Shown in pieces: positions 5,034 through 58,721 of a stretch of DNA of 64,000 nucleotides. Origin of the DNA: Effrenium voratum (Eukaryota > Sar > Dinophyceae > Suessiales > Symbiodiniaceae); NCBI GenBank assembly GCA_963377175.1, contig CAUJNA010000839.1, forward strand, positions 2,501 through 66,500. Direction: 5' to 3'. The position numbers and the translations under genes were made by a program. Each line of letters begins with the position of its first letter. The first letter of the stretch is position 1. The notes below the pieces were generated by a model. That model worked only from the letters and a program-made list of their open reading frames with translations. It searched no databases and had not been told where the DNA came from.

Positions 5034-5166
5034 TGAGTCATGATCAAAACCCGGCATCAAAATGGTCACCATGTAAGAAGAATTCCCAAGGCGGATATCC
5101 GCAGCTCTTTCTGTTTGGGATTGTTTCTTACCAACCTTCATCTACCCGGGTTTTGACTGTGGCTCA
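5034..5166. mobile_element. Introner-family element (TGAGYCA...CCGGGT ends)
   Basis: Inverted ends TGAGTCATGATCAAAACCCGG and CCGGGTTTTGACTGTGGCTCA, flanked by ATA/TAT. Same family as dynamin intron 6. Confidence 0.75.
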
Positions 5167-14257: not shown

Positions 14258-14314
<57 letters not shown>

Positions 14315-20729: not shown

Positions 20730-20845
20730 GGCTCAAACCCCGTACCCCCAGTGAACATCCCACTCCCCCACTAAATTAGGTTCTAAAATAGGTGGGTGAA
20801 TTCACCTGCCCCAAAACGGGATCCCATTCAATCTGACCCATGGCC
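20730..20845. mobile_element. MITE-like element, family 4
   Basis: Shares CCGTACCCCCAGTGAACATCC and ATAGGTGGGTGAATTCACCT with the other copies; its right end reads TCTGACCCATGG. Confidence 0.65.
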
Positions 20846-31900: not shown

Positions 31901-34900
31901 ACAAGGGGGATGAGGAGAACCCGGCCATCCGAATGGTCCGAATGGGCCAAGTGCCAGAGCATGTTGCCCCAATGCGGTCAGACCTGAGGAACGCGAACTC
32001 ACCGATCCCCTATGGGTTGATTCCCCATTCTGTTCAACCATCGAACGGCGGCCGCACCCATTTATTCTCCCTGACTACCCTCCAGTTACCCGGGTTTTGA
32101 TTGTGACTTAGCTGTTTTTTATGGTTCGCAAACATGGATCTTGGAAAGACTGGCCCTAGCACTGCAAGTACCACCAGCTGGCATAAGGAAGAAACCTCGC
32201 AATTTCAGCCACCCAGCTTACCCACTGCTGGGTAGAGACCGACCAACAAATCAACCAGGGGTTCAAAGCAAACGGGAGTGCCAAGAGATAACATCGGTTG
32301 CATCCTCACCGCCAGGGCCATAGATCCAAGGAGGATGTCTTGGGACCTTGTCATCTTTGACAGAGGGAAACCCACCAAATGGTGGCACTTCCTTCTGCCT
32401 TTCCGTTTAACCAAACTGAAAAGGATGCCTTCAAAGCCACACACACACACACGCGCGCGCGCGTCCTAGTATCACCTGGGGGGCTAGCCCAAAACCAAAG
32501 TGTTCCAAGCAACCATAACTTCCGCGTTTTCTGGAAGGGCCGGCATTCTCCTTGCTTCCGCCCACCTTCTGACAGGCAGGCATGCAGAACATGCCTCACC
32601 CTGATTTTTTTTTGCCAGTGAAACAAATGCCCGTAAAAAAAGGGCAGACACAGGTCAAGCAACAGTGGGCAACCAGAAAGGGCAACTAACTAAAGGGCGA
32701 CCAAGGGCGACGGAGGCAAAGGCAACCAATAGGCGACTCAAAAAACCACCTAACCAGACCACCAACTAAGGGGTACCTGAAAAAAGAGAGAAAAAAGAAG
32801 AAGAAAAACGAAAGAAACCAGTAACGATGAAAAAACAACACTCCCCCCCCCCCAAAAAAAAAAACTCCTCAAACACCCCCCCCCCGAAAGAAAAAAGGAA
32901 CACACACGACACACGACACACACGCACACAACTCCTCCTGTTGGCTCACGTGGAGGCTTCTCACCAGGGAGGTCAAAGCACTCACCACCATGGCGAAGCA
33001 GAGCACCGAGACGAAGCCCGCGCCCACGGTGTAGACCTACGGACCCGGGGTCGATGTCCGGTGAGGCGCCGACCCGGTTTTGAGATCTGAGGGCAGACAA
33101 GTAACCCAAGCTTTTCACTTTACTGCTTGGGTGGCCTTGGCCAGGAACCCAAGCATAAGTGATATGGCAAGATTTGGGTGGCCCGGCTTCTTTTACCTTT
33201 GTTTTCTTCGGACCTGGGTGCCCCAGGTTTGTGGGTTTTTTTTAGGGGAACCCAAGCAGGAAGACGAAGACATGTTAGGGGGGTCCTCCAAATAAAAAGA
33301 CACGCCCACCTGCTTGCAAACGGTACAGTGTGTGGGCGCTTTCCCCCAGATCCCCTGCCAAACTCCCTCAAACCTAAGGCGATGGCTGGGAACTGCCCTT
33401 GGTATGATAGCAAAAGACTCTCTGCTTTGGGAAGCCTCCTACTAAAAATGAAAAAAAGTGAAGAATTGCTTTGGGTATAGATTAGAATACATGTGCCTTA
33501 GAGTGGAATGTATGGGAATATATGGATTTCCCGTTGGGAGTAACAATCAAAGATGCTAAAAGCTATATTTAGGTGTGTCCTTTAAGGGACCCTATTAGGC
33601 ACGGCTTTTTCTTTTTTCACATAAATTGCAGCCATTTCGAGGTTCGAGCCTGTCTGATTGACAGAACCAGTCCCATTTTTACCACGACCGTTTGATGGCA
33701 GGACCAAGCTCATCCATGATGAAGGTCTCCGACTTGGGGATTCCCCTGTTCCGATTTGGGAACGGTATATAACACAAGGGCCGAACTGATTTCTGGTAGT
33801 TTACCCCGATCGTGAATTTCAAGTATCCCACCACCCCTTCAAATTATTTAGGCCCCTGGGGCCTTTTTCTCCCGTTTTAAACCGGGAACCATGTAGAAAC
33901 CAATTGAAACAGCTGGGGTTTAGGTAGTATTCCATGCCAAAGTGTGTCTCCTTTACGGATCTTGCTACCTGCCTCCTTTTGTCCCCACCATGGCCGACCT
34001 TCGGATAATCACGCTTCAGTGACACACAAAGTAGGACATCCCCTTTCGAGAGGTGTTGGAGGTATAAAGGTTATATACTGCTTATATATTCGGGGTATAT
34101 ACTGCCAAAGCTTATAGTGGTGGTACATCTGCGCGTCCATACATTCAAAACCCATACCCGGAAATGCCCTTGACCCATGAGTACTTTTGCTTATCACAGA
34201 TTTTGCCAAGCGCAACCCCCCACACCCCCCCCCCGCCCCCGCCCCCCTCCAGAGCATCCTGCTTACCTCTAAAAGGGCTCCACTGCTCAGAGGGGAGAAC
34301 ACATATACCCCTTATGTCGCGGCTATGCAGGGGCTTCTCGACTGAAACCATCTTGCGGGTGTTTTGGGGTGAGTGGAACTCATCTTGGGTAGGTGTCAAG
34401 ATCCGGGTAGTCGGGGTAGTGAGAGCCATCTTAGACATATCTTCTGCCAAACTTACCTCCTCAAAAAGGACTGAACATGATACAGGCAGATGGGTAGGTG
34501 TCAAAGTATGGAAACCCTAAAGTTGGGGTGGTATTCTTGTGGTTTCCCTGTAATGTTGACCCCGGATTAATAAACCCCTGTTTATTAATACGGGGGTGTT
34601 CCCTCAAAAGGTGATAAATCCTCACTAAAATCAGAAACGGACACCCCCTATATTGACAAACAGGGGCTAATTAATCCGGGGTCAACATTAACCACCAAGC
34701 AAAGAGGAGTGCCCTCAAAAAAAAAAGTCCGAGGAGCGCTCTCGACCTCGGACACCGCTTCCACCTCAGTGCTGCCCACACCCAGCTGCGCCAGGGACCA
34801 GGTCATGCTGGACGTATACCTGGGCCACACATCGAAAGGCGTGCAAAGGCGTGCCTAGGGCGTATGGGGTAGCGTGCGTGTTGTTATGATGCAGGGGCCT

Positions 34901-37900
34901 TTTTTTACGTACCATACGGGCTTTGGGATGCTTTTGGGGCCAAGTTTGAATAGGATTAGAGGAATAAGCTAGTAACTGCAATTCCCCCTATACCCTTTTC
35001 CAGGCAATGGCTGGGTTCACGACCATCCCAACCCCAAGTAAGCATGTCTTCTGACAATGGCATATTTGTGGATCTGACCCAAAACTTTAATAGGAGCTAA
35101 CAGGGGCTGCTTGCCTAATTCCAATTGCCCAACCCCCGTGGCCGCCTATGAACGATCTCCGGTGGGCTTCGATGCAAAAAAGGCAGCGGAGGGTCATACC
35201 CCCGGCGGCTAAGTGGGGCAAAGGTCAACCGTTGGAAAGAAGAAAAAAACAACTGAAAACCGAACATGCATAGGTGGCCAATAAAAAAGATGGCCCTGGT
35301 AAATGGAACAAAACCCATCTAAACCAGTGCCATCTATTTTTAACCAGGCTCACTTAAAAAGGACACGTCTGCCCCAAAGAGCCGAGAACAGGTATGAGGT
35401 TTGAATCAGCTTCCGTCCAATTGGTCGTTTGGTGGTGGAGGGGTTCCCGGAGTTCCAACCCAAACCACCGATAGAATAACGCAAAACCTAAGCCCGCGTC
35501 CGAGTGCAAGAGAAGCCGCTTACCTGCGAAGGTCATGGGCAAGTACAATGATCGGATCACACAGCAGTCTTCTAGATTTGTGGCATATTCAGAGCTCATC
35601 CTTCTTTTATGTCCCCCCACATTGTGCACTACTGTGGATGGACGAATTCCTGCACCACTTTAAAACTATGGGAAACCGTTGTCCGTTGGCATTTACAGGG
35701 GAATCATCATTCCAGGGTTTCTTTGGTGGTGCAGGATTTCGTCCATCCACAGTATTCCGCATTTGTGCATATATATATATATATATATATGAATATACAC
35801 ATCTGTATATATATATATATATAATATCTAGTTATCTATTTGTGTATTTATTTATTTTACGGGTGTGTCTCAGCCTAAGAATGAGTTGTTGTGCTAATAA
35901 TTTCCCCTTGTTGAATAACCTCGACCTGCTGAAAGGATCTGGACATGAAAGGCGCCAGCCTTTTCGAGCCTTGGCTAAAAGGGAGCCAAGAAGGGAACAC
36001 CAAAAAGGTTTAAAGGAAGGCTTTGGGAAACTGAGACAAGGGCACGCCCAGAAAGACAGACCCATATGAGCAGTGAAAAAAAACCCTGTTACCCGTAAAG
36101 GAAATTACTTCAGCTTTCGCAATCGCTTGCGGAAAGCTTCCGCCAACCGAAAGGTCGCTTACGTTTGCTATTTTTCGAAGATGGAGCTTACGCATAGCTT
36201 ACGACAAGTTGCTCGTGCCTGATCCTCGATGAGCAACAGGCGCTAGCATGACAAAGCAACATCTTGCAGATGGAAAGGCTGCTGCGCAGGCCCAGCAAGA
36301 CAATGGAGGGCCAAAAGCTGAAAACAAACTTTCGGGGCACGAAAAGTTGTTTTCTGCAGAAAGCGCGCGGAACCTCTGCGAGCAAGAGGCGCCGGCAGGA
36401 CAGAGCAACAACTTGCCTGGAAAGGCGCACAGGCTTTGCTGCACAGGCTCAGCAGTGACGTGGAGGGGAAAACTTTTGGGGACCCGAAAAGTTGTTTTCT
36501 GCGAGGATCCACTACGAGCAAGAGGCGCCAGCATGACAGAGCAACAGCTTGCACGGAAAGGTGCAAAGGCTTTACCGCGCAAGCTCAGCATTGACGTGGG
36601 CACACTAGGGATTGAACCCGGGCCTGCCGCATGCGGAGCGGGTGTGATACCACTACACCATGTGATCCTGATGTTGCTGCCCGAAGCCGGTGTTAAAGCT
36701 TTCACGGCCAGAGAGGGGCAACAGCTCAAGAAAACTTTGCAGACAGCGCACGGGCGCTGCGAGCAAGAGGTGCCAGCACGGCAGAACAACAGCTTGCAGC
36801 ATGGAATGCTGCGGGTCCTCTGAAAGGCGCAAAGGCTTTGCTGCACAGGCGCAGCAGTGACATAGAGGGGGAAAACTTTTGGGGGCCCGAAAAGTTGTTT
36901 TCTAAGTTTTTGTTCCAGCCCGCGCCGCGAGCTTTTTTTGGCTTCGGGGCCCTGAAAAGTGCCTGCAGGTGGCAAAAGGTGCCTCGCAACAAAAAAAACT
37001 TTTCTGGGCTCGAAAAGTTGTTTGTGCTTTCCAAGCCCAAGGCCCAAAGGTGAAAAGGCAAATCCGCAGCAAAACAAGCGGGGCTCAACATGTTGTTTTC
37101 CAAGCCCGCGCAACGAACAAGGTGAGGTGCCAAAACAAAACTTTCGGGGCTCGAAAAGTTGTTTTCCAAACGCGAGCTTTTTTGTTCAAGCTGGCCAACG
37201 CGTGTGCGTGGAACATTGCAAAAGGTTTGCACAAGTAACCCAACAGTCAAACAGCAGTTGTCTGAGCCAGAAAAAGTTGTTCACTGAAAGAATCCCTTTC
37301 CTTGTTGCTCGGAAGAACCAATTCCAGCAATCTGATCCCATTTTCACGCCTAAAAGCATTACGCGGACCAAAAGCAACTTCTACCAAACAGTCTGAACGA
37401 AAAACGGATCTGACAAACAGAGCTTACGCAAAGCTTACGACGAGTGACTCATGCATGCAGCTTACGCAGGACCTTCCGATCGCTTACGAATCACGCAAAA
37501 ACGCTTACGACTGCAAGAGTAATTTCCAGTTTCATCTAAATTGATCTACGGAGGTTTTTTTCGCCGCTCATATGGCCATGGGCTTTTCAAAAGCCCGGTT
37601 AGCCCCCAGTGAACATCCGATTCAATCCAACCACTAAAATAGGTTCTCAAATGGGTGGTGCACCTACTCAAGTGGGTGGTGAATTTACCTACCCCCAACA
37701 TGGTACTACTGGTTTTGACCCACAGCCAGAGGAGTGCTGTCACATTCTACACAACAATGCCCACCCGCACGTCTCAAGCCCATAGCCAGGTGCTGGCGGA
37801 GCATGGACTTGTCCCCCATGTTGAAGTGCTGAATCCAGGTCTCGTCCTCGGGAGCACAGGACGTGATACCGAGGACGGCGACGCGACATCCGCTCGACCG

Positions 37901-43900: not shown

Positions 43901-45465
43901 CTTCACTTGAGTCACAATCAAAACCCGGTATTAAAATGGTCTACCCAGAACCATGTGAAGAATTAAGAAGGCGGCCGCAACCATTTCTGGCTGGGACTGC
44001 CCCTTACTAACTTTTATCTACCCGGGTATTGATTTTGGCTCACATGCAGGTTTGAAATCCCAAAGTGCGGGTCCTCCTGCGCATACATCATCACAGAGCG
44101 CGTGGTGCCCGCCATGATAAGCATCTGTGTCTGCACACTGCCTGCGGCTCTCCGACCCACGAGCGAGTTGCTGAAGCCCTGGATTGCTGAAGCCCTGGTT
44201 GACCAATATAGGTGGTGCCTTTTTCGTGGTCGAACCCTGCCACGATCCCCACGCCCCGACAAATGCCGTTGGAGGCTGTCCACATACTTGTGTGCGCATT
44301 TGGCCACGCCTGTTTCAAGAAAGGTTGAGGCAAGTACACTTTCCCGAAATGCACCAAGAGAGATACTTGGACCGGCTGGGAAAATCTCCGCTCTTCCAAA
44401 TGGTTTTCGGTCCCGGATCCTGATCCGTAATCCTAACCACTATGGAAGGGAAGCATTGAGCCTGTTCAATTAAAGGAAGCCAACTGCAAATGCAACCGTT
44501 TCAAACCTTTTAGGGGCCCTTCCCGGCCTGTCCCCGCCGTTTGCTTGCATTGGGTCCAGCACTCGTGAGGCCGCAAGGCCCTCCGGATCGGGGGTTCCTC
44601 CTCCTCAGGACATCCGAGTATTACGCACTCGGGTTGTGGGAGGGTACCCCTGTTCGAGGTTCTCAAAAGGCAAACCCGCGCCATTTGGGGGGGGGGGGGT
44701 TTGTGAGACAACCCAACTCAAGCGACACTGCAGTCACGTCTAAATCAGAGCAAGCGAGAAGGTAGGCCCTGGATAGGTCAAAAACGCTGCTGCCACACCG
44801 GGAAAGCCCGCTTTCGGCTGGACCGGAATGCATGAGCAGGGTTCCTTACAGGATACATGCCGAAACCAAGTGATTCACAAGGCTCAGCTGGCTCAGTCCA
44901 AGGAACGACACGCAGCAGCGCCGGATCTGCAACCTCAGCAAGCACAAATATCTGCGCAGGGGTGGATGCCGAGCTGGAAAGCTGAGCAGGGAGCACACAG
45001 TGCGAATCAAGGGTGGCAACCTGGCATCTCCTGAGAGGAGAGTAAACCAAAAAAAGAAGTGGAAGCCGGCAAGCCCCGCGGCCCTTGGCCATTTTTGTTG
45101 GCTAGCACCTTGCTTGGGCTGCTATAAGAAAACTCAGATGCCCAGTGGCCATGGGGAACAAGGGCATTTTTGATTGGTTGACTTTAAAGGGGAACCCTTC
45201 CCCGTGGCCATGGGGAACAAGGGCATTTTTGGTTGGTTGACTTTAAAGGGGAACCCTTCCCCTAAAAAAGGAAAAAGGGGCACCACTGGGCAACTGGGAA
45301 AAGGAGAGCAAACGCTCTCCAGCCCCGGCGAGGCCGCCCCCCCCTTACACCTGGCTGCAGCCTTGCTGCCACGGAGGCCGGCGGCTTGCCGAGCTCCTGC
45401 GACCGCAGAATCTTTGAGACTCTCGCAACCTGTTCGGTTTGCGGCGAGGTGACACTCTTGGCCAT
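25854..45465 (-). CDS. Voltage-gated cation channel with C-linker and cNMP-binding-like domain (HCN/CNG/EAG superfamily), 18 or more exons
   Basis: Exons on the minus strand: 45465-45351, 44141-44060, 43446-43344, 43003-42955, 41969-41827 (S1), 41147-41011 (S2), 40592-40532 (S3), 40174-40067 (S4), 39057-38956 (S5), 37846-37787 (turret), 34819-34747 (pore), 33036-32938 (S6), 31489-31388, 31053-30953, 29976-29916 (C-linker), 28281-28224, 27964-27874, 25957-25854 (cNBD). Phases agree at every join except turret-pore and 27.87-25.96 kb, where a small exon is probably missed. Together they give about 550 aa. Membrane order, an S4 with five Arg at every third position, a pore helix T-W-S-L-A-Q-L and a cNBD core F-S-A-G-E-A-A place it in the superfamily. 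The pore lacks GYG, so ion selectivity is unknown. The gene probably continues to about 18 kb. Donors are mostly GC, some GT, two or three GA. Confidence 0.85.
26000..27800. other. Intron-like stretch of the channel gene
   Basis: It should contain at least one small cNBD exon that I could not identify. Open frames of 80-156 codons on both strands at 26.4-26.9 kb have no recognisable motif. Confidence 0.4.
27116..27236. repeat. Dispersed repeat family 5
   Basis: CTTCTGCTCCCCTGCTAAAAG with a slightly longer palindrome (AAAAGTTTGTTCAAACTTTT), then GGAAAACCCATGAAAGTTGGC and ATGCACCAAAG. Confidence 0.75.
27874..27964 (-). CDS. Channel exon 17: cNBD beta-roll core
   Basis: Encodes G-E-M-V-F-S-A-G-E-A-A-N-R-S-F-L-P, then S-G-H-F-Q-Y-M. 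This matches the cNBD motif 'D-x-V-F-x-x-G-E-x-A-x-x-M-x-F-x-x-x-G'. CAAAG|GTCC donor. Confidence 0.88.
28224..28281 (-). CDS. Channel exon 16: entry helix of the cNBD
   Basis: CACAG|GAG acceptor; encodes E-N-Y-V-L-H-H-L-S-V-H-A-I-S-I-L-D-L-G, at the position of the alpha-A helix and the first cNBD strand (usually '...L-x-x-x-D'). The GC donor is preceded by CG rather than AG. Confidence 0.8.
29916..29976 (-). CDS. Channel exon 15: end of C-linker
   Basis: CCGAG|G acceptor, CGG|GCTCGC donor. Twenty codons: F-T-K-H-K-R-S-L-G-K-L-P-F-L-R-L-A-Y-A-R, at the position of the 'H-P-F-F' turn before the cNBD. Both phases match. Confidence 0.75.
30953..31053 (-). CDS. Channel exon 14: C-linker, second part
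   Basis: CGCAG|GAG acceptor; encodes I-L-E-K-L-S-V-P-L-I-G-E-L-L, the 'E-x-L-S-x-x-L-x-x-E-L' helix typical of C-linkers. A GC donor after TCAGT gives the phase needed by exon 15. Confidence 0.88.
31388..31489 (-). CDS. Channel exon 13: C-linker, first part
   Basis: GCCAG|GAG acceptor, CAG|GCGACA donor, 34 codons. The frame reads R-Q-L-R-Q-F-L-W-Q-N-Q-I-P-T-P-L-G-K-R-V, then R-Y-L-R-Y. The pattern 'L-R-x-F-L...I-P...L-x-x-R-V-x-R-Y' marks the A'-B' helices of the C-linker. Confidence 0.92.
32040..32112. repeat. Introner-family element, partial
   Basis: Contains GCGGCCGCACCCATTTATT and ends TTACCCGGGTTTTGATTGTGACTT. Only one terminus is preserved. Confidence 0.55.
32938..33036 (-). CDS. Channel exon 12: S6 segment
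   Basis: CGTAG|G acceptor, CAG|GAGGAG (GA) donor, 33 codons: V-Y-T-V-G-A-G-F-V-S-V-L-C-F-A-M-V-V-S-A, then L-T-S-L-V-R-S-L. It is in phase with the pore exon and with the C-linker exon. Confidence 0.92.
34552..34689. mobile_element. MITE, family 1 (AATGTTGACCCCGGATTA ends)
   Basis: A 138 bp element whose first and last ~50 bp are inverted repeats: AATGTTGACCCCGGATTAAT at the left, its complement ATTAATCCGGGGTCAACATT at the right. It lies in the channel intron just after the pore exon. Further copies: 5171-5306 and 22302-22586. Confidence 0.85.
34747..34819 (-). CDS. Channel exon 11: pore helix and selectivity filter
   Basis: CCCAG|G acceptor, GAG|GTCGAG donor. It encodes Y-T-S-S-M-T-W-S-L-A-Q-L then G-V-G-S-T-E-V-E. 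The aromatic/Thr-rich pore helix is typical. The filter position holds G-V-G-S instead of GYG or GFG, so K+ selectivity is not predicted. Confidence 0.9.
35278..35368. repeat. Family 3 element, partial
   Basis: Shares CATCTAAACCAGYGCC, ATTTTTAACCA and CTCAC...AAAAAGGACAC with 400-475, and AAAAAGGACAC with 60466-60584. Confidence 0.6.
35632..35752. mobile_element. MITE, family 2 (CTGTGGATGGACGAA ends, TA flanks)
   Basis: A 121 bp element with inverted ends CTGTGGATGGACGAA...CACCAC and GTGGTGCAGGATTTCGTCCA, flanked by TA on both sides, which suggests a TA target duplication. Partial relatives: 7543-7617, 37930-38006, 10245-10262, 45552-45600. Confidence 0.8.
36216..37180. repeat. Degenerate tandem repeat, units of about 130-160 bp
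   Basis: Each unit carries GAGCAAGAGGCGCCAGCA, then CAACAGCTTGCA, GCAAAGGCTTTGCTGCACAG, and a palindrome-like block of AACTTTTCGGGGCCCGAAAAGTTGTTTTC type. Units begin near 36225, 36378, 36512 and 36757. Further copies of the AAAAGTTG block lie at 36885, 37010 and 37150. The tRNA-like element interrupts the array. Confidence 0.75.
36594..36672 (-). tRNA. tRNA-like sequence (pseudogene or SINE head)
   Basis: On the minus strand TGGTGTAGTGG fits the Pol III A box and GGTTCAATCC fits the B box, about 45 bases apart. An anticodon-like stem CCGC/GCGG encloses the loop TCCGCAT. The acceptor stem is imperfect and position 33 is C rather than T, so I think it is a tRNA-derived sequence rather than a working tRNA. 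It sits between units of a local tandem repeat. Confidence 0.45.
37595..37725. mobile_element. MITE-like element, family 4
   Basis: Shares CCCCCAGTGAACATCCGAT, the GTGGTGCACCTAC block (partly duplicated) and GGTACTACTGGTTTTGACCCA. It ends about 60 bp from the channel turret exon. Confidence 0.65.
37787..37846 (-). CDS. Channel exon 10: S5-pore turret
   Basis: CCCGAG|GAC acceptor, CTG|GCTATG donor, 20 codons including D-E-T-W-I-Q-H-F-N-M-G-D-K. A turret 'T-W-I' between S5 and the pore is common in this superfamily. Its phase 0 end does not match the next exon found, so a small exon is probably missing between 37.8 and 34.8 kb. Confidence 0.7.
38956..39057 (-). CDS. Channel exon 9: S5 segment
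   Basis: CTTGAG|G acceptor, CAG|GCGAGC donor, 34 codons. It contains S-L-C-L-L-L-L-C-L-V-L-L-E-H-V-I-A-C-G-W-F: a hydrophobic S5 ending in the H-x-x-A-C-x-W signature of CNG/EAG channels. Confidence 0.93.
40067..40174 (-). CDS. Channel exon 8: S4 voltage sensor and S4-S5 linker
   Basis: GCAG|GAG acceptor and CAG|GCTGGT donor, 36 codons. The sensor reads R-F-L-R-C-V-R-L-L-R-A-A-R, five Arg at three-residue spacing. The linker is L-Y-S-F-L-Q-E-K-L-D-S-Q. Confidence 0.95.
40532..40592 (-). CDS. Channel exon 7: S3 segment
   Basis: GGGCCAG|G acceptor and GAG|GCGCC donor. Sixty-one bases encode T-W-F-L-F-D-F-G-V-V-L-L-D-A-I-L-E-F-G-E, an S3 helix with the conserved 'W-F-x-x-D'. The phase join to exon 6 is exact. 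Confidence 0.93.
41011..41147 (-). CDS. Channel exon 6: S2 segment and S2-S3 loop
   Basis: Encodes V-G-F-W-I-L-D-L-V-L-N-F-R-T-A-Y-V, the S2 helix with the D-x-x-x-N-F-x-T motif typical of CNG/EAG channels. The loop ends in K-V-A-W-N-Y-L-R. The donor is GA (CTGAG|GAGAAAGG), and the AG|G codon completed in the next exon is Arg. Confidence 0.92.
41827..41969 (-). CDS. Channel exon 5: S1 segment
   Basis: CCAAG| acceptor (phase 1), CTG|GCAAAC donor. It encodes R-V-D-V-F-R-K-E-G-S-Q-V-F, then V-L-D-P-A-G-Q-F-R-T-C-W-D-L and V-A-I-L-F-L-G-L. The pattern 'P-x-x-x-F-R-x-x-W-D-L' running into a hydrophobic helix is how S1 begins in CNG/EAG-type channels. Confidence 0.85.
42955..43003 (-). CDS. Channel exon 4 (cytosolic, short)
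   Basis: Placed after a strong polypyrimidine tract and CCCCCAG. Sixteen codons (P-P-A-S-A-H-V-F-S-L-G-L-A-K-L-E) plus one base, then AAG|GTGCCC. Phase 0 in and phase 1 out match both neighbours. Confidence 0.55.
43188..43308. repeat. Dispersed repeat shared with 22320-22432
   Basis: Shared words are GCATTATACACCTGAACATT, CCCTTTATT and TCTTTTAAGG in the same order; about 75-80% identity by eye. Confidence 0.7.
43344..43446 (-). CDS. Channel exon 3 (cytosolic)
   Basis: A GAAG|G acceptor and a GAG|GTTTTC donor. It encodes S-F-T-E-D-P-N-L-C-K-F-L-V-G-R-I-A, then S-F-Y-G-P-R-A-V-L-K-L-E: 34 codons ending in phase 0. The peptide is clearly protein-like in this frame only. Confidence 0.6.
43908..44042. 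mobile_element. Introner-family element
   Basis: Ends TGAGTCACAATCAAAACCCGG and CCGGGTATTGATTTTGGCTCA. It lies between two probable channel exons, and its end gives a GTGAGCC that could serve as a 5' splice site. Confidence 0.75.
44060..44141 (-). CDS. Channel exon 2 (cytosolic)
   Basis: CCGCAG|GC acceptor in phase 1; encodes S-V-Q-T-Q-M-L-I-M-A-G-T-T-R-S-V-M-M-Y-A-Q. A GA donor at 44060 gives the phase needed by the next exon. The alternative GT donor at 44044 coincides with the end of an inverted-repeat element (43908-44042) but would be followed by a TGA. Confidence 0.5.
45145..45262. repeat. 59-bp unit duplicated in tandem
   Basis: GTGGCCATGGGGAACAAGGG...GGGGAACCCTTCCCC occurs at 45145-45203 and again at 45204-45262 with one base changed, indicating a recent duplication. 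Confidence 0.9.
45351..45465 (-). CDS. Channel exon 1: initiation exon, N-terminal cytosolic segment
   Basis: The ATG directly follows a CCCCAG acceptor, as expected where a trans-spliced leader joins. Thirty-eight codons (M-A-K-S-V-T-S-P-Q-T-E-Q-V, then helix A-R-V-S-K-I-L-R-S-Q-E-L) end in phase 1 at a CCAG|GTGTAAGG donor. The next exon candidate (44141) starts in the matching phase. That it belongs to the channel rests on order and phase, not on homology. Confidence 0.6.
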
Positions 45466-47324: not shown

Positions 47325-47846
47325 CTATAGAACGTTGAAACTGTACGCCTCCGGCGGAATGGCCTCGAGCAGCTCCACTGAAACTTCAGTTGAGCCACTG
47401 TTAGCGGCAGCAAAGTCAGCCCAGCCCCAACCAAACCCTCCATTGAAGGTTTTGCTCTCTGTTTTCACCACACCCTCAAGGGTTGCCTTGAACCTGATCT
47501 GCCAGCCTTCAGGCGCATACAGGAACATTGACATGTTGCCATCTGAAGCGTTTGCATCCCCCCGCGGATACAGGCTCAGATACAAATCTGGCACGCCCAT
47601 CAATGTGAACTTCTCACTCTTGATTTCATCACCCTTTTTGAACGTCTGGCCTTCCACCTGCACAGCAAAGTTCCACATGAATGCGGGCGGCTTCTTCGCC
47701 GTCCCATCCGCTGCAGAAGCGCTGCTTGCAGGCTGCGTCTTTGCCTGTTCGGCCTTCGCATCGGCTCTGGCCCGGGCCTTTTCCACAACGGTCTGCTTGC
47801 CTTTTTGAACAGGCAAAGCTGCCGTCTTCAAACCCATCATCTGCTC
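47325..47846 (-). CDS. Last exon of the dynamin gene: Ala/Lys linker and MATH/TRAF-like domain
   Basis: It encodes 173 residues and stops at TAG (47327-47325). After an Ala/Lys/Gln-rich linker comes a beta-rich module starting F-M-W-N-F-A-V-Q-V. It contains I-K-S-E-K-F-T-L-M-G-V-P-D-L-Y-L-S-L-Y-P-R-G, then G-N-M-S-M-F-L, and ends with G-W-G-W-A-D-F and V-E-L-L-E-A. This order (W strand, S-x-x-F, lyPrG, the variable loop, S-x-x-L) is that of MATH/TRAF domains. The join to the stalk is in frame through the 115 bp GC-AG intron. The alternative is a separate short gene starting at an internal ATG, but that would leave the upstream exon without an end. Confidence 0.8.
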   Translation of the reverse strand, partial: EQMMGLKTAALPVQKGKQTVVEKARARADAKAEQAKTQPASSASAADGTAKKPPAFMWNFAVQVEGQTFKKGDEIKSEKFTLMGVPDLYLSLYPRGDANASDGNMSMFLYAPEGWQIRFKATLEGVVKTESKTFNGGFGWGWADFAAANSGSTEVSVELLEAIPPEAYSFNVL

Positions 47847-50800
47847 CTGCCGCACATGCCATGGAAGCCAAAGCTGGAACAAAAGCAATCACTGCATGTT
47901 TCTTCGACAAAGCTGTTCCGACAAAAGACGTGGAACATGCAGAACCACCATTTTCCCTTGCCTTGAAGTCCCGCAAGACGTTGATCTTCGCCTTGAGATC
48001 CTCCTGGCGATGCACGATGGTCCCGTCCCTTGGGAAGAGCTCATGCAGGTTGGTTCCGGCCAGCTGGTCTCGCCACGTCTCCTCCAGCTCCGCCAGCTGC
48101 TCCATGGTGAACTTCACCAACTTGGCCGACTCGACAAAGCCTTCGATCATGAAGCCGGTAAATCGACGCGCAAAGACGCACAAATCTCGAGAGCTGCCAG
48201 TTTCTGCGGCTCCTGGGCTTGCTCCAAGCGCACGAACTCCTCCAGCTCGCTCTCCTCTTCTCCGTTCTGCCCCTGCCCTCCCAAGAGAGCCTGGGCAAAA
48301 ATTTCTTGACTCCATCCGCAGCTTCCTGAAACCAAGACTTGCGAAACTGCGTCAGCTTCACCATGTACTGACCGTGTGTGGTGGAGGTCACTTGCTGAGC
48401 CTCCGACAACATCTCACAGACTTCTCGAGCTTTCGTCGTGAGTTGGTCAATGCACTCCTCAGCCTTTGCATCCAAAGAGTTGGCCAGGATGCCATTGATG
48501 TTGGCGTGCAACCCTATGACATGCGCCACCACCTGAGTCAAAAATCAAAACCGATCGGTACTAACATGGCTGTCCAAAACCAGAATCCAAAAAGCTGCTG
48601 CCCATTTATTACGCCTTACGAACCTTCATCTACCCGGGGCTTGATTGTGGCTCACCTTGCGAAGATGCTCACCAACGTCTCCAACCAGCCCATTCACGCT
48701 GTCTTTCAAAAGCCCTTCTTCGATGAAGGTTTGCTTGATCAGGTTGATAAAGACATGGGGGCCGACCAGGTTCTCCACCGTGTACCCAGTCACAAAGGTT
48801 TGTACTGTGTCATCTACCTCATCGATCATATCCTGTCCCAACCAATCAGGATTGCGCTCCAGCAGCTCTTTCCGAAAGCTCTGAACCATCGAAGCAACGA
48901 TCGGCGCAATTGTCAGTTCTCGGTCAGAGGTCTCTGCGCTCATGAACTCTGCACGGATTCTGCGCACCAAATCATTCCTGATTCGAGCAAGAATGCCATT
49001 GAACAACCGAAATTGATCAGCCTCCGTATCCGCTTGGGCTGGCAATTTGCGCAGCTCCTCCTGCAATTCGCCAGTCTTCTTGCGCACGGCATCCTTGATC
49101 TTTGGCAGACATTCGTCCACTCGCGCCTCTTGGATCTTTGCGACCCTTTCCATAAGATTCAAAGTGCCCCAATTCTTTTCGGGTAAGGTCTTCATGCGAT
49201 CTTTCTTTGTAAAGATCGCCTTCTCCTTGTTCCAGAGATCTTCCCGACTCATGCCATCATCGATGTTCTTTTGAGAACGATTGACAACACAGTGGAATCC
49301 CAGCTCAAGAATCTCTCAACATCAACACCTGCAGCCAAAGAGAGCTAAGGAAAATGTTTTGCGCTTTAACGTTCGCACCCCCCCCCCCCATTCTACCCGG
49401 TCCTACCACGCACAAGCAAAAACTGCGCCTTCTCAACGATGTCAGAGGCTTCGGCGTTGGCCGCGTCATCGCACTTTGTAACCACACCCAAGGTGCGGAT
49501 GCCTTGGGGATCATACTTCCGCGCCAGCTTCACAACCTGCAAGAAGGCCGGCTGAGATCACCGCTTCCGATCGAGTGGACTTGACCCAAAAAGTCCAAAC
49601 ATACTGGTTGCCACTAAAATGGTCCAGACCCCAAAAGATGGCTCAAGTCCATGAACTCGAGAAGTGAGTCAGGCTGTAGTTTAAGCTGCGGCGCTGCGTT
49701 TTGAGGCTAAGTCCGTGAACTCAGGGAGTGAGTTTCAGGCAGGTGACACACAAACCTCCTGAAGACAAACATCGCTGCAACGTCACACGTCCGCCAATGA
49801 GTATCTATCTGCCTGTGTCGGATTTGCTTAAGACCTTCAACACGCATCCTCCAAACGCCAGCGCGCGAATTCTGCCTGCCTCCGCATTTCCGAAGTCGGA
49901 CATGGCCGGTATCACGCAAAGGATCACCATCTCTTCTGGCTTGATGTACTCTTCCACCAAGTTCACTGTGACCTTTCAAATAATTGCAACACTCGACCAA
50001 ACTGGAAGTCGTGAAAGGAAGTCGGACCTCTATCTCGGACTGATCTGGAAAGAGTCACGACTTGCCAACAATCTGCAATGCAAACATTCACCTCAACATT
50101 GTTCTGCTCCGAAGCTTGACTTGTCCAGCCTCGTGGATGTTCTGCATCTGATCTGCGTTGTGGGTCACGCCAGGAAGGTCAATCAAACTAAGCTGAGGTC
50201 CCTCTCGGCGAACCACTCGGACATAGAGGGCCTGAAAGCACCGGAAAGGGCCAAAGAAATCGAACCTGGCAACGCAGGAATATGACGCCGTTGATGCGCA
50301 ACACGTACAGCCAAAACAACCCTAAACAACGAGACGCTCCAGAGAGTTCGACTGCCACCAGCTTCGGTCCGACTGATTTTCACCACACTGCCTCAAGGGG
50401 GTGGGATCGTACCTGTTGGTCGATCAGCATTCTCTCTGGAGTCGATGTCGGTGTCTCTCACACACCACTGACCCAAAAGTAAAGTACAACGAAATAAAGG
50501 TAAGCAAATGCGAACGCATGCAAACCAAAATGTTGTACAGCAAGGTATCCAAAGGGGAGTGGACGTTCTCCCGTCCGCTCGATCAATGCTGACTTCAGGG
50601 ACTGAGAGGTACTGGAGGCATGCAGTGAAAAAGGTGAGGGTGGGTGGGAATGAAAAAGATCTATTCACCAAAATGGCAAGCGGTGTGAATGCACACGATT
50701 CATGCAAGGGCACAGCACTTGAGATGCCAGTTCAAGTGCGGGTTCAAGCCCTTTCGCTTGCAGTTGCTACTTTTAACACAGGAGTTAACCGCAACAACGA

Positions 50801-53800
50801 GACGCTCCAGAGAGTTCGACGGTCCGACTGATTTTCACCACACTGCCTCAAGTGGGTGGGATCGTACCTGTTGGTCGATCAGCATTCTCTCTGGGGTCGA
50901 TGTCAGTGTCTCTCAGACACCACTGACTCAAAAGTATCTGCGTGGCCGGTCTCGGCTCTCACGAAACATGGAAGTCCAGTCAGTTTCAGGTGCAATGGCA
51001 CTGGTGGAACTTTTGGAGTTCCTTTACTCCGTCGAATCCGACGTTATGGGCGAACTCAATGTCGCCTATGACGCGGCACTTGCGTTTGTGCAACGCGTGC
51101 ATCGGTGGCTGCAAGATTTGCCAGCCGTGGGTGTGAGCCAAGGACATGTCTTGGCGGCTAAAAGGGCCGGCAATGCTGGCATGTGTGGCTACACGCGCTA
51201 TGTGCAATAGTAGTTGCTGACGGTTGTGCCAGGTCCAACGTGCTCCCAAGTAGGCAGTTCAAAGGTTGGTGTTTGCCTACTCCCCTGCGGATCGCGTGCT
51301 TGGCTGCTTCGTTATCACACAGCTGAAGGTATGTGTTGGTAAGCCAGGGCCGAAAGATGACCGGGGCTATAAGAGCAGCCCATGCTTCGAGGAAGTAGAT
51401 GGCGTTGGTGCTGCTGACCTGTTGAAGCAGGTTCGGTGGCAGTGCACCCGATACGACTCTGGCTCGACACGCGTGGGGTGTGAAGAGCACTGCTGCCCAG
51501 CCGTTGTCAAAAGACTAGTTGGGGGGCAGGGTCATGTGGCCATCCGTTCGCCCTGTTTGCAAAGGGCGTCGGTGTAAATGATGGTGAGGGCACGTGCCGT
51601 GTCGCTGAGGGCGATGCTCCGGGGGGAGCTATGTTGCAGGACGTTGAATAGGATCAGAATGGCGGCTCAAGCCGGTTTCTCGATCTGATCGGATGTGCTG
51701 TGAGCTTTGTGGTACAGGGCCGCTTTGTCGGGATCGACCGACTCGGCCAAACAGATGGCCGGAGACAAAATTGCACTTGCCCGCCGTGTGTCTGGCGGCG
51801 TCGCCATTGGGACAGGGTCTGCATCACGCGTCAGACTCGGTCCGGACAGGGCCTGAGTGTGGCGCGGGTGTCCGATGAAGACTCCCTGTATTTTACGTGA
51901 AGGTGCCGGGGCCACTGAAAGATGCGAAGGAGCTCTGTGAAATCTGTGTAGGCTGTATGGCACCATGGTCATCCACATAGTGGAGAGCAAGATGGTCAAC
52001 ACACGCGCGAGTGCGCTTAAGGCGTAGCGGAGGTTGTAGCCCCACGCGCTGGCTGCAGAGTCTGGCGTGAAAAGGAGCACGTATGCCACCTCTGGTTGTG
52101 GTTGACGGTAAGCGCCATCGTCCCACACGTGTAGCTGGTGTTGAGAGTCGGGGTATTGGCGTGCGCACTGGATGGTCGTGCGTGGAGCAGGTCTGGTTGC
52201 GGCCGCTCCGGCGCCAGTCTTCACCCCGTCGGATCTTGGGCTTCCCATCGGAGCCTGTCTGGTGCATGCTGAATGCAATGGCCACGATGGGGTTCGGGCA
52301 CGGTAGCGGAAGGAGCGTGTCGGTGTGTGGGAAGGTGCGCAAGGAGACCGTCTTGGTTTGCCAATGTACTGGTGCGACAAACGGTCCTGCCATCCGTCCC
52401 GGTTCGGCTTCTCCCGCAATCTCTGTGGCCATGAGTGTCCAATGGTCATCAACTTTATGTTGTTTGAGCATACGTGGTTGAAAGAGCGTAGTTCGCTCAG
52501 GTTGCAGGGGGGCAGAAATTTGTGGTCCTGGCATATGCGCCGGTCGCAGTGGGCCAAGTAGGTCAAAGCCGTTGGACATTTCGTCGTGTAGTGACTGGGT
52601 CTGCGGGTATTCCACCATTCGGAGGAGGTGTGTCATCAGTGGGACTTGTGTGATCATTTTCGGTTGTTTGTATGCCCGTTGGTCATGTAGTGGAAGTGTC
52701 AAGAGTTGTGTCTCGTCCGACATGGCGTCCCGAAGGTCCTCAATGTCCTGCAGAACGTGGTGCGGCATGGACTGCTGCATGTCGATGGCCCACTTGACTG
52801 TCGGGTCGCAGTCTTGGGATTGTTGGATGGAGAGGGCATGTTGCTGGACCCATTCGAGGTGGTCTCGCCAGTCGTTCTGCGGCATGTGTACAATGTCGCT
52901 GTGCCGCGGCGGTGCTTTTTTATAGTTGGGGGTTGCGCAGCCACAGGTCGACCACGGTGCCGAGGGCGCCTTTACGGACGTGTCGTATAGGTGGTTGTAT
53001 TCCAAAGGCTGGTTGTAGTAGTCCCAAGACGACGCGATCGGCTGATCGTGGGTCGTGGGTCTCTGCTGGATGGGGCGTAGGTCTCGGCCTCGAGAAGTTG
53101 CAGCGCGTTGGCTCTCGATGTAGGAGCCCCCGCAGCGATTGCCCGATGTAGGGACCCGTGTCGCGTTGTCCGGTATGGTTGTATGTCGTGTCGGGCCGGG
53201 GGTATGTAGTCCAATGCCGGTTGTTCGGTGCGGAGCATGCGGGTCAACGTTTACCGGACAGAGGAGTGGTGTGGTGGTGGGTTCCACTCGCCGTACTGAT
53301 GGTCTCGGAGGATCTCGTAGGTCTCCTGTCGCGATACAAATCGCCATTCATGTGCGGCGGTATCGTAGTGGACGCCGACTCCAGCATTCGGTCTTGAGTG
53401 GTGCACGAAGCGAAGCCAAGCAAGAAGGCCGCCGTGCGTCGTGGAGTGGTTGCAGGAGGGTGGTGGCCGCGTTGTCGAAGGTGCCGGTTGCATATGTTGT
53501 CCCGGAGAGCGTGCGACCCTTACAGCTGGAGCTCGTGCGTGCATACCCGGTTGCCCGGGAGGATGTTGCCCGCGCTAACGGCCTCGGGCAAGGTGGTGAG
53601 GTAGGCCTGGAGGGCATGGTACAAGCACGTCAGGCGCAACCTCGATCATCTCCATGAGCTGGTAATGCTGCAAGACGTCGATGAAGCACGAGGGTGCAGT
53701 CATGGCGGAAGGTCCCGGGCGGTCAGGTCTTGGAAAAATGAAAAAGATCTATTCACCAAGATGGCAAGCGGTGTGAATGCACACGACTCACGCAAGGGCA

Positions 53801-54638
53801 CAGCACTTGACATTCCAAATCAAGTGCGGGTTCAAGCCCTTTCGCTTGCAGTTGTTACTTTTAGCACACGAGTTAACCGCAACGAAATGCGTGTGCTTCT
53901 TGTTGAAAGACCCCTAAAACGGTTGTTGTCCTTCTGGACTAGCCCCAAAAAAACGGAACCATCAAACAAAGACACATCAAGAATCCACACACCATGGATC
54001 TACCGTTTCACGTCCGCAGGCCTGACTTGAGATGAACTCGTTGCCAGTTGCATGCTTGTCGGTAAGCCCCTTGATGTGGCTTTCGACATCAGATACGGAG
54101 CATTTACTTGCCTTGGGTGGACAACACGAGTTTCTTGCCACTAGGCCTTTCATGCACTCAACCGCCACAGCAAAAAAACACTATCCATTCAAGAGCTACA
54201 TGGATGCTTCAAAGAAGATGTCCAGAAGCACGTTTTGTTGAACCATGCCGACTACAACACCCACTAAACACAAAGCAGTGCCAGTGCAATCGAAGCAGCG
54301 TCTGCAAAACTGGGGTCCATGGATACTTCCGCAGAGGAATCTTTCAGGGTCGGGTCCGTCAGCAAGGTGAGGACACATGGCATTCTTGTACATGTGTTCT
54401 GCGCCCTTGGGAACTGAATGCCGGAGATATTTTCCAGCAAAGATGACTTGCCAGCAGACTGCTCTCCAACCACCACCACTCCGGGAAGCGGGATGGCGAC
54501 GGATTGGCACACATGGCGGACGCGTTCGAACAAGCCCAACTTCTTCGAAACGTCCGCCATGGCCTCCTTCAATGAATGCTCGGCAAGCTGGCCGCCACGC
54601 TCCATCTCGGCAAGGGTCGGAACCTGAACATCTGCCAT
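47325..54638 (-). CDS. Dynamin-family GTPase with C-terminal MATH/TRAF-like domain (10 or more exons)
   Basis: Large membrane-remodelling GTPase. Exons on the minus strand: 54638-54300, 54111-54022, 50231-50130, 49972-49880, 49536-49429, 49312-48656, 48532-48392, about 48290-47962 and 47846-47325. The first seven are multiples of three and join in phase 0. The predicted protein of about 790 aa has G1 GEQSAGKSS (58-66), a switch-I Thr-Arg (84-85), G3 DLPG (161-164), G4 TKCD (228-231) and an NRSQ motif (255-258). A long helical middle/stalk part follows, then a linker rich in Ala and Lys and a MATH-like beta domain to the stop TAG at 47325. Donors are GC for introns 1-5 and the last intron, GT for introns 6 and 7. 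A possible trans-splice acceptor (CTCAG) lies 36 bases before the ATG. I could not resolve the frame between about 48200 and 48165: an intron I missed, an indel or an assembly error. There is no PH or proline-rich domain. Family assignment is firm; cellular role is inferred only. Confidence 0.9.
47962..48290 (-). CDS. Dynamin exon 8 (possibly two exons): acidic loop and C-terminal stalk/GED-like helices
   Basis: The upstream half reads an acidic segment (E-E-E-S-E-L-E-E-F-V-R-L-E) in one frame. The downstream half reads G-F-V-E-S-A-K-L-V-K-F-T-M-E-Q-L-A-E-L-E-E in another, ending at D-F-K before GCAAGG. Both halves look coding, yet they differ by one base in frame between about 48200 and 48165. 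I cannot place a normal intron there. A small unrecognised intron, an indel or an assembly error would each explain it. The last intron (47961-47847) is GC-AG. Confidence 0.65.
48392..48532 (-). CDS. Dynamin exon 7: stalk helix
   Basis: Forty-seven codons in phase 0 (CAG|G acceptor, CAA|GT donor), predicted helical (V-I-G-L-H-A-N-I-N-G-I-L-A onwards). The donor choice matters. Reading straight on is open for about 30 more codons but then puts the downstream acidic segment out of frame. A 101 bp GT-AG intron (48391-48291), whose acceptor follows a T-rich tract, restores the frame. Confidence 0.7.
48533..48655 (-). other. Dynamin intron 6 = inverted-repeat element (introner)
   Basis: A 123 bp GT-AG intron. 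On the minus strand it opens GTGAGCCACAATCAAGCCC and closes GGTTTTGATTTTTGACTCAG. Apart from one G on each side, the termini are imperfect inverted repeats of consensus TGAGYCAMAATCAARMCC. The same termini and the internal word CCGGGTAGATGAAGGTT occur at 5034-5166; related copies are at about 32.1 kb, 43908-44042 and 57.65 kb. Confidence 0.8.
48656..49312 (-). CDS. Dynamin exon 6: end of G domain and start of stalk
   Basis: The longest exon, 219 codons. It starts with the last GTPase strand (G-F-H-C-V-V-N-R-S-Q) and continues into amphipathic helices rich in Glu, Lys and Leu, typical of the middle/stalk region, including a helix with R-N-D-L-V-R-R-I-R. The acceptor (GAGAG|ATT) is atypical because the next base is not G, so the exact start is less sure. 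It ends at CGCAAG before GTGAGCC, which is also the end of an inverted-repeat element forming intron 6. Confidence 0.9.
49429..49536 (-). CDS. Dynamin exon 5: TKCD (G4) motif
   Basis: Thirty-six codons in phase 0, with a GCAG|G acceptor and an AAG|GC donor. It encodes L-A-R-K-Y-D-P-Q-G-I-R-T-L-G-V followed by V-T-K-C-D, the guanine-specificity motif, in the context typical of dynamins (D-P-x-G-x-R-T-x-G-V-x-T-K). Confidence 0.95.
49880..49972 (-). CDS. Dynamin exon 4
   Basis: Thirty-one codons in phase 0, AAAG|G acceptor and GAG|GC donor. It encodes the segment Y-I-K-P-E-E-M-V-I-L-C-V-I-P-A, the hydrophobic strand that in dynamins precedes the D-x-x-N-x-E/D-A helix; D-F-G-N-A-E is seen at its end. 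Confidence 0.9.
50130..50231 (-). CDS. Dynamin exon 3: DLPG (G3) motif
   Basis: Thirty-four codons in phase 0 between a TTTCAG|G acceptor and a GAG|GC donor. The exon encodes the beta strand and G3 motif L-S-L-I-D-L-P-G-V, diagnostic of the dynamin superfamily. It lies only 95 bp from the edge of the retroelement in the preceding intron. Confidence 0.92.
50327..50479. repeat. Retroelement split repeat Y, outer copy (B2)
   Basis: Outer copy of repeat Y. The junction with host intron lies at AAACAAC/GAG, 95 bp from dynamin exon 3. Confidence 0.85.
50649..50795. repeat. Retroelement split repeat X, inner copy (A2)
   Basis: Second copy of the 53737-53883 repeat. It abuts repeat Y at 50795, the configuration expected from recombination of a circular intermediate. 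Confidence 0.85.
50795..50934. repeat. Retroelement split repeat Y, inner copy (B1)
   Basis: It begins CAACGAGACGCTCCAGAG and is nearly identical to 50327-50479 apart from a 13 bp gap. It borders the RNase H end of the coding region. Confidence 0.85.
50986..51490 (-). pseudogene. RNase H-like region of the retroelement, frameshifted
   Basis: One frame (51490-51158) has I-Y-F-L-E-A-W-A-A and L-Q-L-C-D-N-E-A-A-K-H-A, the Glu and Asp strands of a retroelement RNase H. The next part, W-T-W-H-N-R-Q-Q-L onward with A-G-P-F-S-R, is in the frame 51249-50986. The last motif normally has the form A-D-x-x-S-R; here the Asp is Gly, another sign of decay. Confidence 0.75.
51893..53347 (-). pseudogene. 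Reverse transcriptase region of the retroelement, frameshifted
   Basis: A 484-codon open frame with RT-type motifs: G-F-D-L-L-G-P-L near residue 265, G-K-P-K-I-R-R-G-E-D-W-R-R-S further on, and the catalytic Y-V-D-D box at 51979-51968. The segment with D-G-A-Y-R-Q (catalytic motif A, about 52.12 kb) lies in a different frame, so at least two frameshifts interrupt the domain. The frame upstream of 53.35 kb is also broken. The DWRRS and DGAYRQ contexts match what I recall of RTs common in dinoflagellate genomes. Confidence 0.8.
53737..53883. repeat. Retroelement split repeat X, outer copy (A1)
   Basis: It begins AATGAAAAAGATCTATTCAC and ends GTTAACCGCAAC on the plus strand. It is about 93% identical by eye to 50649-50795. 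The right boundary with host intron is at AAC/GAAATG. Confidence 0.85.
54022..54111 (-). CDS. Dynamin exon 2
   Basis: Thirty codons in phase 0, following an AAG|G acceptor and ending in CAG before a GC donor (GCCTGC). The sequence around residues 114-143 matches the helix found after switch I in dynamins (charged, ending in E-F-I-S-S-Q). Introns flank it at 188 bp upstream and 3.79 kb downstream; the latter is long because of the retroelement at 50.33-53.88 kb. Confidence 0.85.
54300..54638 (-). CDS. Dynamin exon 1: start, P-loop and switch I
   Basis: This exon encodes 113 residues from the ATG at 54638. It contains the nucleotide-binding P-loop GEQSAGKSS preceded by a hydrophobic strand (VVVVG), then the F-P-R-x-x-N-T-C-T-R stretch, which corresponds to the dynamin G2 region where a Thr coordinates magnesium. 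It ends at GAC before a GC donor. An AG preceded by pyrimidines sits at 54675, just upstream of the ATG, where dinoflagellate mRNAs receive the spliced leader; that use is inferred. Confidence 0.92.
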
Positions 54639-57065: not shown

Positions 57066-58721
57066 CCTGATCCCTTTGAGGGCAACCCCCCCATTTCATC
57101 TGCAAGGCGTTTTAATCCGAGGCCGACACCAGCCGGCAAAGCAGAAGGAAATCGGGAACGAACCGTTTCGGACGGTCATTTGGTGGAGAAAACTGAATCC
57201 TCACGTTTTCCCGCGGGCCATTTCGAGGTTCTACTTAGGCTCTCGGTCATGGCCCCTCGGTTCCCCAAGAACTCTCACGCCCCTCCCCGATTTCCGAGCT
57301 TGGGATCCCGAAAAAAAAATGGAGGACCTTCCTCCCTTTCTTGGCCAGCTACACTGGGCTTGTTGCGCGTTTGTACCGAGCTAGCCGATTTGAGTTGTCT
57401 TTTATTTGTGGAAAAAGAAATTGTCTTTACCCCTAAGGAACCCAAAGAAGATCCATTTTACCCGCACGCTAGGGTACTCGGTATGAAACTAGTCAGAAAA
57501 CATGAATTTCTATGTACCCTGGGCCGCAACCAGGCTCCTATGTCATTACTCCCTCCAAAAACCTCCTTTAGGGGACCCACCAAAATTGCAAAACGGTGTT
57601 CCGGTTGGTTTCCCAATAAGGGGCAACTCACGAAAAGATACCGCCAATTGAATCACAATCAAAACCTGGTGGTTAGAGTCTACCCGAATCCAGGGAAGGA
57701 ATTCATGAGGCAGCCGCGCCGATTTCTGGCTGGGACAGCCTCTAACCTTCTTCGTTTCGCAAGGACCGCCTCAAAAAAGCACACAAGTTGTAGTTGCCCT
57801 TTTCCAGGAGTCACTGGACAAATCCAACAGTTGATCAACTTGTTAACGTGTCGCATAGGCAGGGGTCTAGTCAACTTGGTCTCGCGACCATCTCAAATAA
57901 GAGAAGTGGAAAACCCCTCATACCCCCATACCCCCATACCCCCCACTTAACCAGACAAAGAGAAAAAAAGAAGAAAAAGAAACTCGTCCTCTCCCCTTTT
58001 GTCTCCCGGGTGGCATCCACAAACCGCCGGCATCGGCGTCGACGTCTCGGCGCTCCACCGCGCCGCCTTCGCCTCGCCAGCTCCGCTTCGTAGGCCTCCC
58101 CCAGGCGCCGGTGGAGCTCCCAGAAGCTCTGGCGAGCGAACGAGCGACGCAGCCACCGGCTGGGTGGGGGTCGCTGCGCAGGATCTTGGGCCGGCAGACA
58201 TGGGTGAGCGGGGGTGGGAGGCGGGATGGGGGGGGGGCTGGAAGGGGAATTTTCGGGCTCCTTCCACTTGTCAGGTACCGTTTTTGAAAGGGTCTTCGGT
58301 TTTTCTTCGGGCTCGTTTGGGCTTTCGTCGGGTACTTTTGTTTAAGAGGGTATTTTGTCGGGCGCGTTTGCGCTCCTTCCATTCGTCGGGTGCTTTTTGT
58401 TTAAGGTGGGTGGCTACGTAAAATGGGCAAATGGGGAGAAGGCTTGTAGGGGATGTGGGAATGGACCGCTTTGGGGAGTCCTGAACATAGGAAAAAACCA
58501 TATGGATGGTTTGGAAGGGTTACTCCGACATCCCTGCTGAGCACCAGCAAGAAATAGGAAGATGGGGGGTGGGTCTGTCCTTTTTTGGAGTTGGGAAACC
58601 AAGAATAAAATTATTAACTATGTTTTGTTGTTTGTTTTTCTTGGTGTGTATTTTGTTTTGAGGGGGGAGCTAAATACATAAATATACAATATCTATATCT
58701 ATATATATATATACAGATGTT

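What the first reader, a model, noticed from the sequence alone, without database searches (positions are those of the whole stretch)
48533..48655. An intron that is one inverted-repeat element (introner)
Intron 6 of the dynamin gene is bounded within one base by the terminal inverted repeats of a dispersed family with at least four other copies here (5.03, 32.1, 43.9, 57.6 kb). The TIR supplies GTGAG at one end and CTCAG at the other. This is what is expected if a DNA-transposon-like element creates new introns by inserting into exons.
Basis: partly seen in the sequence, partly recalled or inferred. Interest (0 to 1): 0.85.

Follow-up and report, generated by a model that had tools for sequence, protein, structure and literature searches.

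The report
Dinoflagellate intron made by transposon insertion
One intron of a dynamin-like gene in a dinoflagellate is a small inverted-repeat mobile element that landed in an AGGT site and, by duplicating that site, gained both splice signals; this way of making introns is already known in dinoflagellates, so this is a clear new example, not a new phenomenon.

Summary
The predicted intron 6 (48533-48655, minus strand, 123 bp) of a dinoflagellate dynamin-like gene is, to within one base at each end, a copy of a dispersed inverted-repeat family. The family has two other full and two truncated copies in the window, and a sixth on a chimeric public contig. The 21-base repeat tip occurs 7 times here and never in 100 shuffles. 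Ten of ten examined copy ends are flanked by ANNT. At intron 6 the flank is AGGT on both sides, so the target duplication supplies donor and acceptor (AG|GT), and precise removal restores the frame. Six ORFs of relatives that appear to keep the preceding intron unspliced run straight through this site, which points to gain by insertion. Two limits: no transcript was available, and the gene copy carries three frame disruptions, so it may be a pseudogene or contain assembly errors. Enrichment at introns genome-wide could not be tested (the genome search did not complete); of five copies here, only this one lies in a recognised gene. Published introners in Symbiodinium microadriaticum already show inverted repeats and 4-bp target duplications. 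This is a new member of a known kind.

The parts
48533..48655 (-). Predicted intron 6 of the dynamin-like gene: GTGAGCC...GACTCAG, 123 bp, 46% GC
48535..48653 (-). Element proper (GAG...CTC), 119 bp, with imperfect inverted repeats of about 20 bp at its ends
48654..48657 (-). Target copy AGGT at the donor side (AG exon, GT intron)
48531..48534 (-). Target copy AGGT at the acceptor side (AG intron, GT exon)
48656..49328 (-). Exon 6 of the dynamin-like gene, start set by the relatives' VLM; an 11-base shortfall against relatives lies near its start
47962..48532 (-). Exon 7; continuous with exon 6 in relatives; two out-of-frame indels (near 48300 and near 48165)
54297..54638 (-). Exon 1 (GTPase start), ends approximate
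54019..54111 (-). Exon 2, ends approximate
50130..50234 (-). Exon 3; donor AG|GC; start approximate
49880..49972 (-). Exon 4; donor AG|GC
49429..49536 (-). Exon 5; donor AG|GC
47349..47849 (-). Exon 8, MATH-like C-terminal domain (below the Pfam cut-off), ends approximate
5035..5165 (.). Full family copy, flanks ATAT/ATAT
43909..44041 (.). Full family copy, flanks ACTT/ACAT
57650..57746 (.). Truncated family copy, flank AATT at the surviving end
32057..32109 (.). Truncated family copy, flank AGCT at the surviving end

Best explanation
A short non-autonomous DNA transposon (MITE-like, about 120-133 bp, inverted-repeat tip GAGYCACAATCAAAACCCGG) inserted into the coding sequence AAGGTGGTG of a dinoflagellate dynamin-like gene. 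Insertion duplicated the target AGGT (4 bp; a 2-bp GG duplication with tip TGAG gives the identical product). The upstream copy supplies the donor GT and the downstream copy the acceptor AG, so the spliceosome can remove the whole element and restore the original codons. Shown by sequence: family, repeats, target duplication, exact frame restoration, uninterrupted frames in relatives. Inferred: the empty target sequence, that the element moved by a transposase acting in trans, and that it is spliced in the cell.
For: Seven repeat tips in the window against 0 in 100 shuffles. Intron and element ends coincide to one base on both sides. Ten of ten ends of 6 copies are flanked by letters of the form ANNT. 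The flanks of the 4 full copies are identical in two (AGGT, written ACCT on the + strand; and ATAT), differ by one letter in one (ACTT/ACAT) and by two in one (L002, ACTT/AGCT). AGGT is 7 of 156 ANNT sites on the sense strand of the joined exons, this site included, so landing in a spliceable site by chance is about 0.045. Six ORFs (P0017, P0018, P0020, P0026, P0027, P0031) begin with residues unlike the protein that end in Q just before the exon-6 start, read here as unspliced intron 5, and then run through the intron-6 site without interruption; P0016, P0028, P0032, P0034, P0035, P0038 and P0039 also run through it. Introns 3, 4 and 5 of the gene have AG|GC donors and no match to the element; intron 6 is AG|GT.
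Against: No transcript of this gene: the nearest protein compared is 86% identical over 291 columns. The gene copy has three frame disruptions against relatives, so the element could sit in a dead gene. Only 1 of 5 window copies is in a recognised gene. The flanks of two of four full copies do not match perfectly. P0001 and P0004, in the same weakly supported cluster (94/76), are gene models with introns whose positions I could not see, so the intron may be shared with them.
Confidence: 0.77

Rival explanations
1. A MITE inserted into an already dying or dead dynamin copy; its splice-like ends are a by-product of landing in AGGT and it is not spliced.
For: Three out-of-frame disruptions against relatives; 4 of 5 window copies lie where no gene was recognised; AGGT is 7 of 156 ANNT sites, so chance is low but not excluded.
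Against: The junction is frame-exact and the exon sequence on both sides aligns without a gap to P0016 at 86% identity; the window's end branch (0.094) is below the median of 0.23; the out-of-frame changes may be assembly errors.
Confidence: 0.2
2. An older intron that a transposon later filled or replaced (insertion into an existing intron, with loss of the old sequence).
For: Dinoflagellate genes can be intron-rich (title and passages seen) and the window holds many short repeat families.
Against: No intron sequence is left outside the element: the element plus two duplicated target letters on each side is the whole intron, and relatives' ORFs run through the site.
Confidence: 0.03

Closest known systems
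Introners of Symbiodinium microadriaticum (Gozashti et al. 2022, PMC9860276; section 7 and passages read)
   Same: Dinoflagellate, inverted repeats, 4-bp target duplication, splice site co-opted from the duplication
   Different: There the element carries its own 3' splice site and takes the 5' site from the duplication; here both sites can be read from the AGGT duplication.
Introners of Polarella glacialis and other dinoflagellates (Roy et al. 2023, Curr Biol; not read, known here from a passage in PMC11453091)
   Same: Many introner families, recent intron creation in dinoflagellates
   Different: Sequence identity with any of those families could not be tested
Introner elements of Amoebophrya (Farhat et al. 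2021, PMC7789003; passages seen)
   Same: Introns with inverted repeats of 8-20 nt and direct repeats of 3-5 nt at the boundaries
   Different: Those were defined among introns with non-canonical splice sites; here GT-AG
Introners of Aureococcus and Micromonas (Huff et al. 2016; recalled, paper not held)
   Same: MITE-like origin, target duplication supplies splice signal
   Different: Target length and repeats differ (recalled)

Membership tests
Introner (intron-creating repeated element) | Intron sequence is a copy of a dispersed repeat family | tested here: met
   7 tips against 0 in 100 shuffles; 5 copies in window, 1 on L002
Introner (intron-creating repeated element) | Element boundaries coincide with splice sites and removal restores the coding sequence | tested here: met
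Introner (intron-creating repeated element) | Intron absent from relatives at the same position | tested here: met
   6 ORFs that appear to hold intron 5 unspliced run through the intron-6 site; three of them come from contigs of the same length, 391420, perhaps one contig. Exon positions of P0001 and P0004 could not be seen.
Introner (intron-creating repeated element) | Many copies of the family are introns in the genome | not tested
   The genome search did not answer in 10 of 10 tries; in the window 1 of 5 copies
Introner (intron-creating repeated element) | Splicing shown by RNA | not testable with these tools
   no transcript of this gene
MITE / non-autonomous TIR DNA transposon | Terminal inverted repeats, no coding capacity, short | tested here: met
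   119-133 bp copies, tips about 20 bp
MITE / non-autonomous TIR DNA transposon | Target-site duplication | tested here: met
   2 of 4 full copies perfect, 1 with one mismatch, 1 with two
MITE / non-autonomous TIR DNA transposon | Autonomous partner with transposase | not tested

The most novel reading that the evidence does not exclude
One transposase with target rule ANNT drives at least two inverted-repeat families of different sequence in this genome (GAGYCACAATC..., and GGCCATGGGTCAAAA... with flanks AAAT/AAAT at 1115-1227 and ATCT/ATCT on L002). Because AGGT is one of the sixteen ANNT targets, any such insertion at AGGT in a sense exon becomes a complete AG|GT...AG|GT intron whatever the element contains: intron creation is set by the target rule alone, in either orientation of the element.
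Probability: 0.3. Interest if true: 0.5.

Novelty: new member of a known kind. Interest (0 to 1): 0.36.

Why it matters
It is a clear single-locus picture of how a transposon makes an intron: element, duplicated AGGT, exact frame restoration and uninterrupted relatives can all be read from sequence. The A..T target rule, if it holds genome-wide, would explain without any special adaptation why some insertions are spliceable, and it gives a direct test: the share of AGGT-flanked copies should be far higher in exons than elsewhere.

Tried and rejected
Genome-wide family count: the same genome search was sent ten times and never answered. Viral contigs were scanned once for the tip and once for an inner consensus; neither scan found anything. 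The one genome-contig scan gave 2 loci: L001 showed no match to the window at E 1e-3; L002 (8000 of 8519 bases held) looks chimeric, bacterial to about 6.6 kb by eye and dinoflagellate-like after it, with two window families.

RNA hairpin of the intron: the two ends pair, but 199 of 200 shuffles fold at least as well, so no claim is made about a structure aiding splicing.

A general scan for inverted repeats with 4-bp flanking duplications gave 65 candidates, 45 after a low-complexity filter, most of them in one tandem repeat at 18.6-18.9 kb, against 2-11 in six random sequences. It was used only to pick up the 1115-1227 copy. It did not list the intron-6 copy, probably because one repeat arm has extra bases.

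Single-exon models P0010 and P0019 (spans of exactly 711 and 631 codons, coordinates) were set aside as evidence for gain, because they lack other introns too and may be retrocopies.

Pfam scans covered 20 of 669 stop-to-stop ORFs of at least 60 aa, two of them frames of the dynamin gene itself and two in its intron 2; 649 were not scanned. Apart from the MATH-like match in the dynamin gene, only one ORF (13974-14693) had weak hits, all below their cut-offs. Four scanned ORFs lie within about 3 kb of the 43.9-kb copy and one near the 32.1-kb copy; none was closer than about 2.8 kb to the 5.03-kb copy or about 4 kb to the 57.6-kb copy. A codon-usage ranking of all 669 ORFs, trained on the dynamin exons, put dynamin frames in the first five places.

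My first exon 5/6 join kept the frame open by a boundary that relatives do not share; it was replaced.

Full report
What is there. On the minus strand lies a dynamin-like gene. The assembled exons match Pfam Dynamin_N (2.3e-30) and Dynamin_M (1.3e-27). The C-terminal exon resembles a MATH domain, below the curated cut-off; the Symbiodinium protein named DRP4C (P0022) also bears a MATH_2 label. The closest named homologues are dinoflagellate, among them Polarella glacialis, Effrenium voratum, Durusdinium trenchii and Symbiodinium. Gene models named Skav (I recall this as Fugacium kawagutii) are among the closest. Exon positions were taken from protein alignments.

Intron 6. The sense strand reads CGCAAG, then GTGAGCC...TTTGACTCAG, then GTGGTGG; the intron is 48655 to 48533, 123 bp. 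Unspliced, the frame meets a stop within the element. With the element removed, K-V-V is continuous and aligns without a gap with close relatives such as P0016.

The family. The tip TGAGYCACAATCAAAACCCGG with up to three mismatches occurs seven times in the window and in none of 100 shuffles. These are both ends of the copies at 5.03 and 43.9 kb, one end at intron 6 (the other end carries extra bases), and one end each of two truncated copies at 57.6 and 32.1 kb. A sixth copy, full length and 80% identical to the 43.9-kb copy over 143 positions, lies on L002 (JANSYO010000133.1). That contig is filed as a Cytophagales MAG but looks chimeric: its first part encodes bacterial proteins (a DnaJ-like and a TonB-receptor-like ORF among them, named by eye), and its last 1.3 kb carries two of the window's repeat families.

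Target rule. Taking the element as GAG...CTC, the four letters outside read ATAT/ATAT, ACTT/ACAT, ACCT/ACCT (AGGT on the sense strand) and, on L002, ACTT/AGCT for the four full copies, and AATT and AGCT for the single ends: A..T in 10 of 10 (for L002 the script was set one base short at the right end, and the AGCT there is). A 4-bp duplication of ANNT with tip GAG, and a 2-bp duplication of NN with tip TGAG and target ANNT, give the same product and cannot be told apart. A second family of different sequence behaves alike in two copies, AAAT/AAAT at 1115-1227 and ATCT/ATCT on L002; against this, a third copy at 37574-37727 reads ATAT/AGAG and a one-ended copy near 20845 reads ACAC.

How the intron arises. 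With AGGT duplicated, the left copy gives AG|GT at the donor and the right copy AG|GT at the acceptor. So the element needs no splice site of its own, and exact removal restores the original codons. AGGT makes up 7 of 156 ANNT sites in the joined exons, this site included, so a chance landing in a spliceable site has a probability near 0.045. This mildly favours selection for splicing. It rests on one insertion and on exon ends partly inferred.

Gain, not loss. Of 330 homologues found (120 listed), I compared 68 and read the ends of 25. Six ORFs, P0017, P0018, P0020, P0026, P0027 and P0031, begin with sequence unlike the protein that ends in Q just before the exon-6 start VLM. I read them as unspliced genomic frames that still contain intron 5, and they run straight through the intron-6 site. 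P0018, P0020 and P0031 come from contigs of one length (391420), possibly one contig; the other three contigs measure 4404, 257297 and 12275. P0016, P0028, P0032, P0034, P0035, P0038 and P0039 also run through (P0034 and P0035 again from contigs of length 391420). The gene tree of 36 rows puts the window copy near P0004, P0001 and P0019 (support 94/76, below the tool's mark) with an end branch of 0.094. P0001 and P0004 are spliced models whose exon ends I could not see, so the gain may predate the split from them. P0010 and P0019 are single-exon models and may be retrocopies; they are not counted.

Doubts. Against relatives the gene lacks 11 bases near the start of exon 6 and has out-of-frame indels near 48300 and 48165. 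It may be a pseudogene, or the assembly may be wrong there. No transcript was available. The other four window copies lie where I recognised no gene, but only 18 ORFs that are not dynamin exon frames were scanned against Pfam, few of them close to those copies (a codon-usage ranking of all 669 ORFs is). The claim that the family is enriched at introns is therefore untested. The intron RNA folds no better than shuffles.

What is known. Gozashti et al. 2022 (PMC9860276, section 7 read) report 548 introner families and describe S. microadriaticum introners with 4-bp duplications and inverted repeats, as well as families in which both splice sites are recruited from the duplication or nearby exon. 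[quoted passage not shown] glacialis, citing Roy et al. 2023, which I did not read. Farhat et al. 2021 (PMC7789003, passages) and PMC10666404 and PMC10522408 (passages) describe introner elements in other dinoflagellates. The mechanism is therefore established in this group; what is added is this locus and this family. Whether this exact family is in their tables I could not test.

Noticed in passing
window 1115-1227, 37574-37727, 20735-20845; L002 7275-7444: Second inverted-repeat family (GGCCATGGGTCAAAA) with 4-bp flanks AAAT/AAAT and ATCT/ATCT in two copies: the same A..T target form as the intron-6 family; other copies do not fit (ATAT/AGAG; ACAC).
   Followed up: partly
window 20721-20735: A 15-base piece identical to the intron-6 family tip abuts a copy of the second family, perhaps a nested or hybrid element.
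   Followed up: no
window 2451, 7686, 12230, 19398, 27116: Another dispersed family of about 55-125 bp matches with five copies, ends not resolved.
   Followed up: no
window 398, 9359, 35297, 60468: Short family with ends CATAGGTGTCC / GGACACCTATG; target duplication unclear.
   Followed up: no
window 50235-54018: Intron 2 of the dynamin-like gene is 3.8 kb and holds long ORFs (51896-53347, minus) without Pfam match and direct repeats (50649/53737; 50325/50793), perhaps a decayed retroelement.
   Followed up: partly
window 49300-49320, near 48300, near 48165: Frame disruptions in the dynamin-like gene against the relatives compared.
   Followed up: partly
L002 (JANSYO010000133.1) 6660-8000: A public bacterial MAG contig looks chimeric with dinoflagellate-like repeat DNA.
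   Followed up: partly
window 36597-36667: tRNA-like match by Rfam (34.2 bits, minus strand) that ARAGORN did not call.
   Followed up: no
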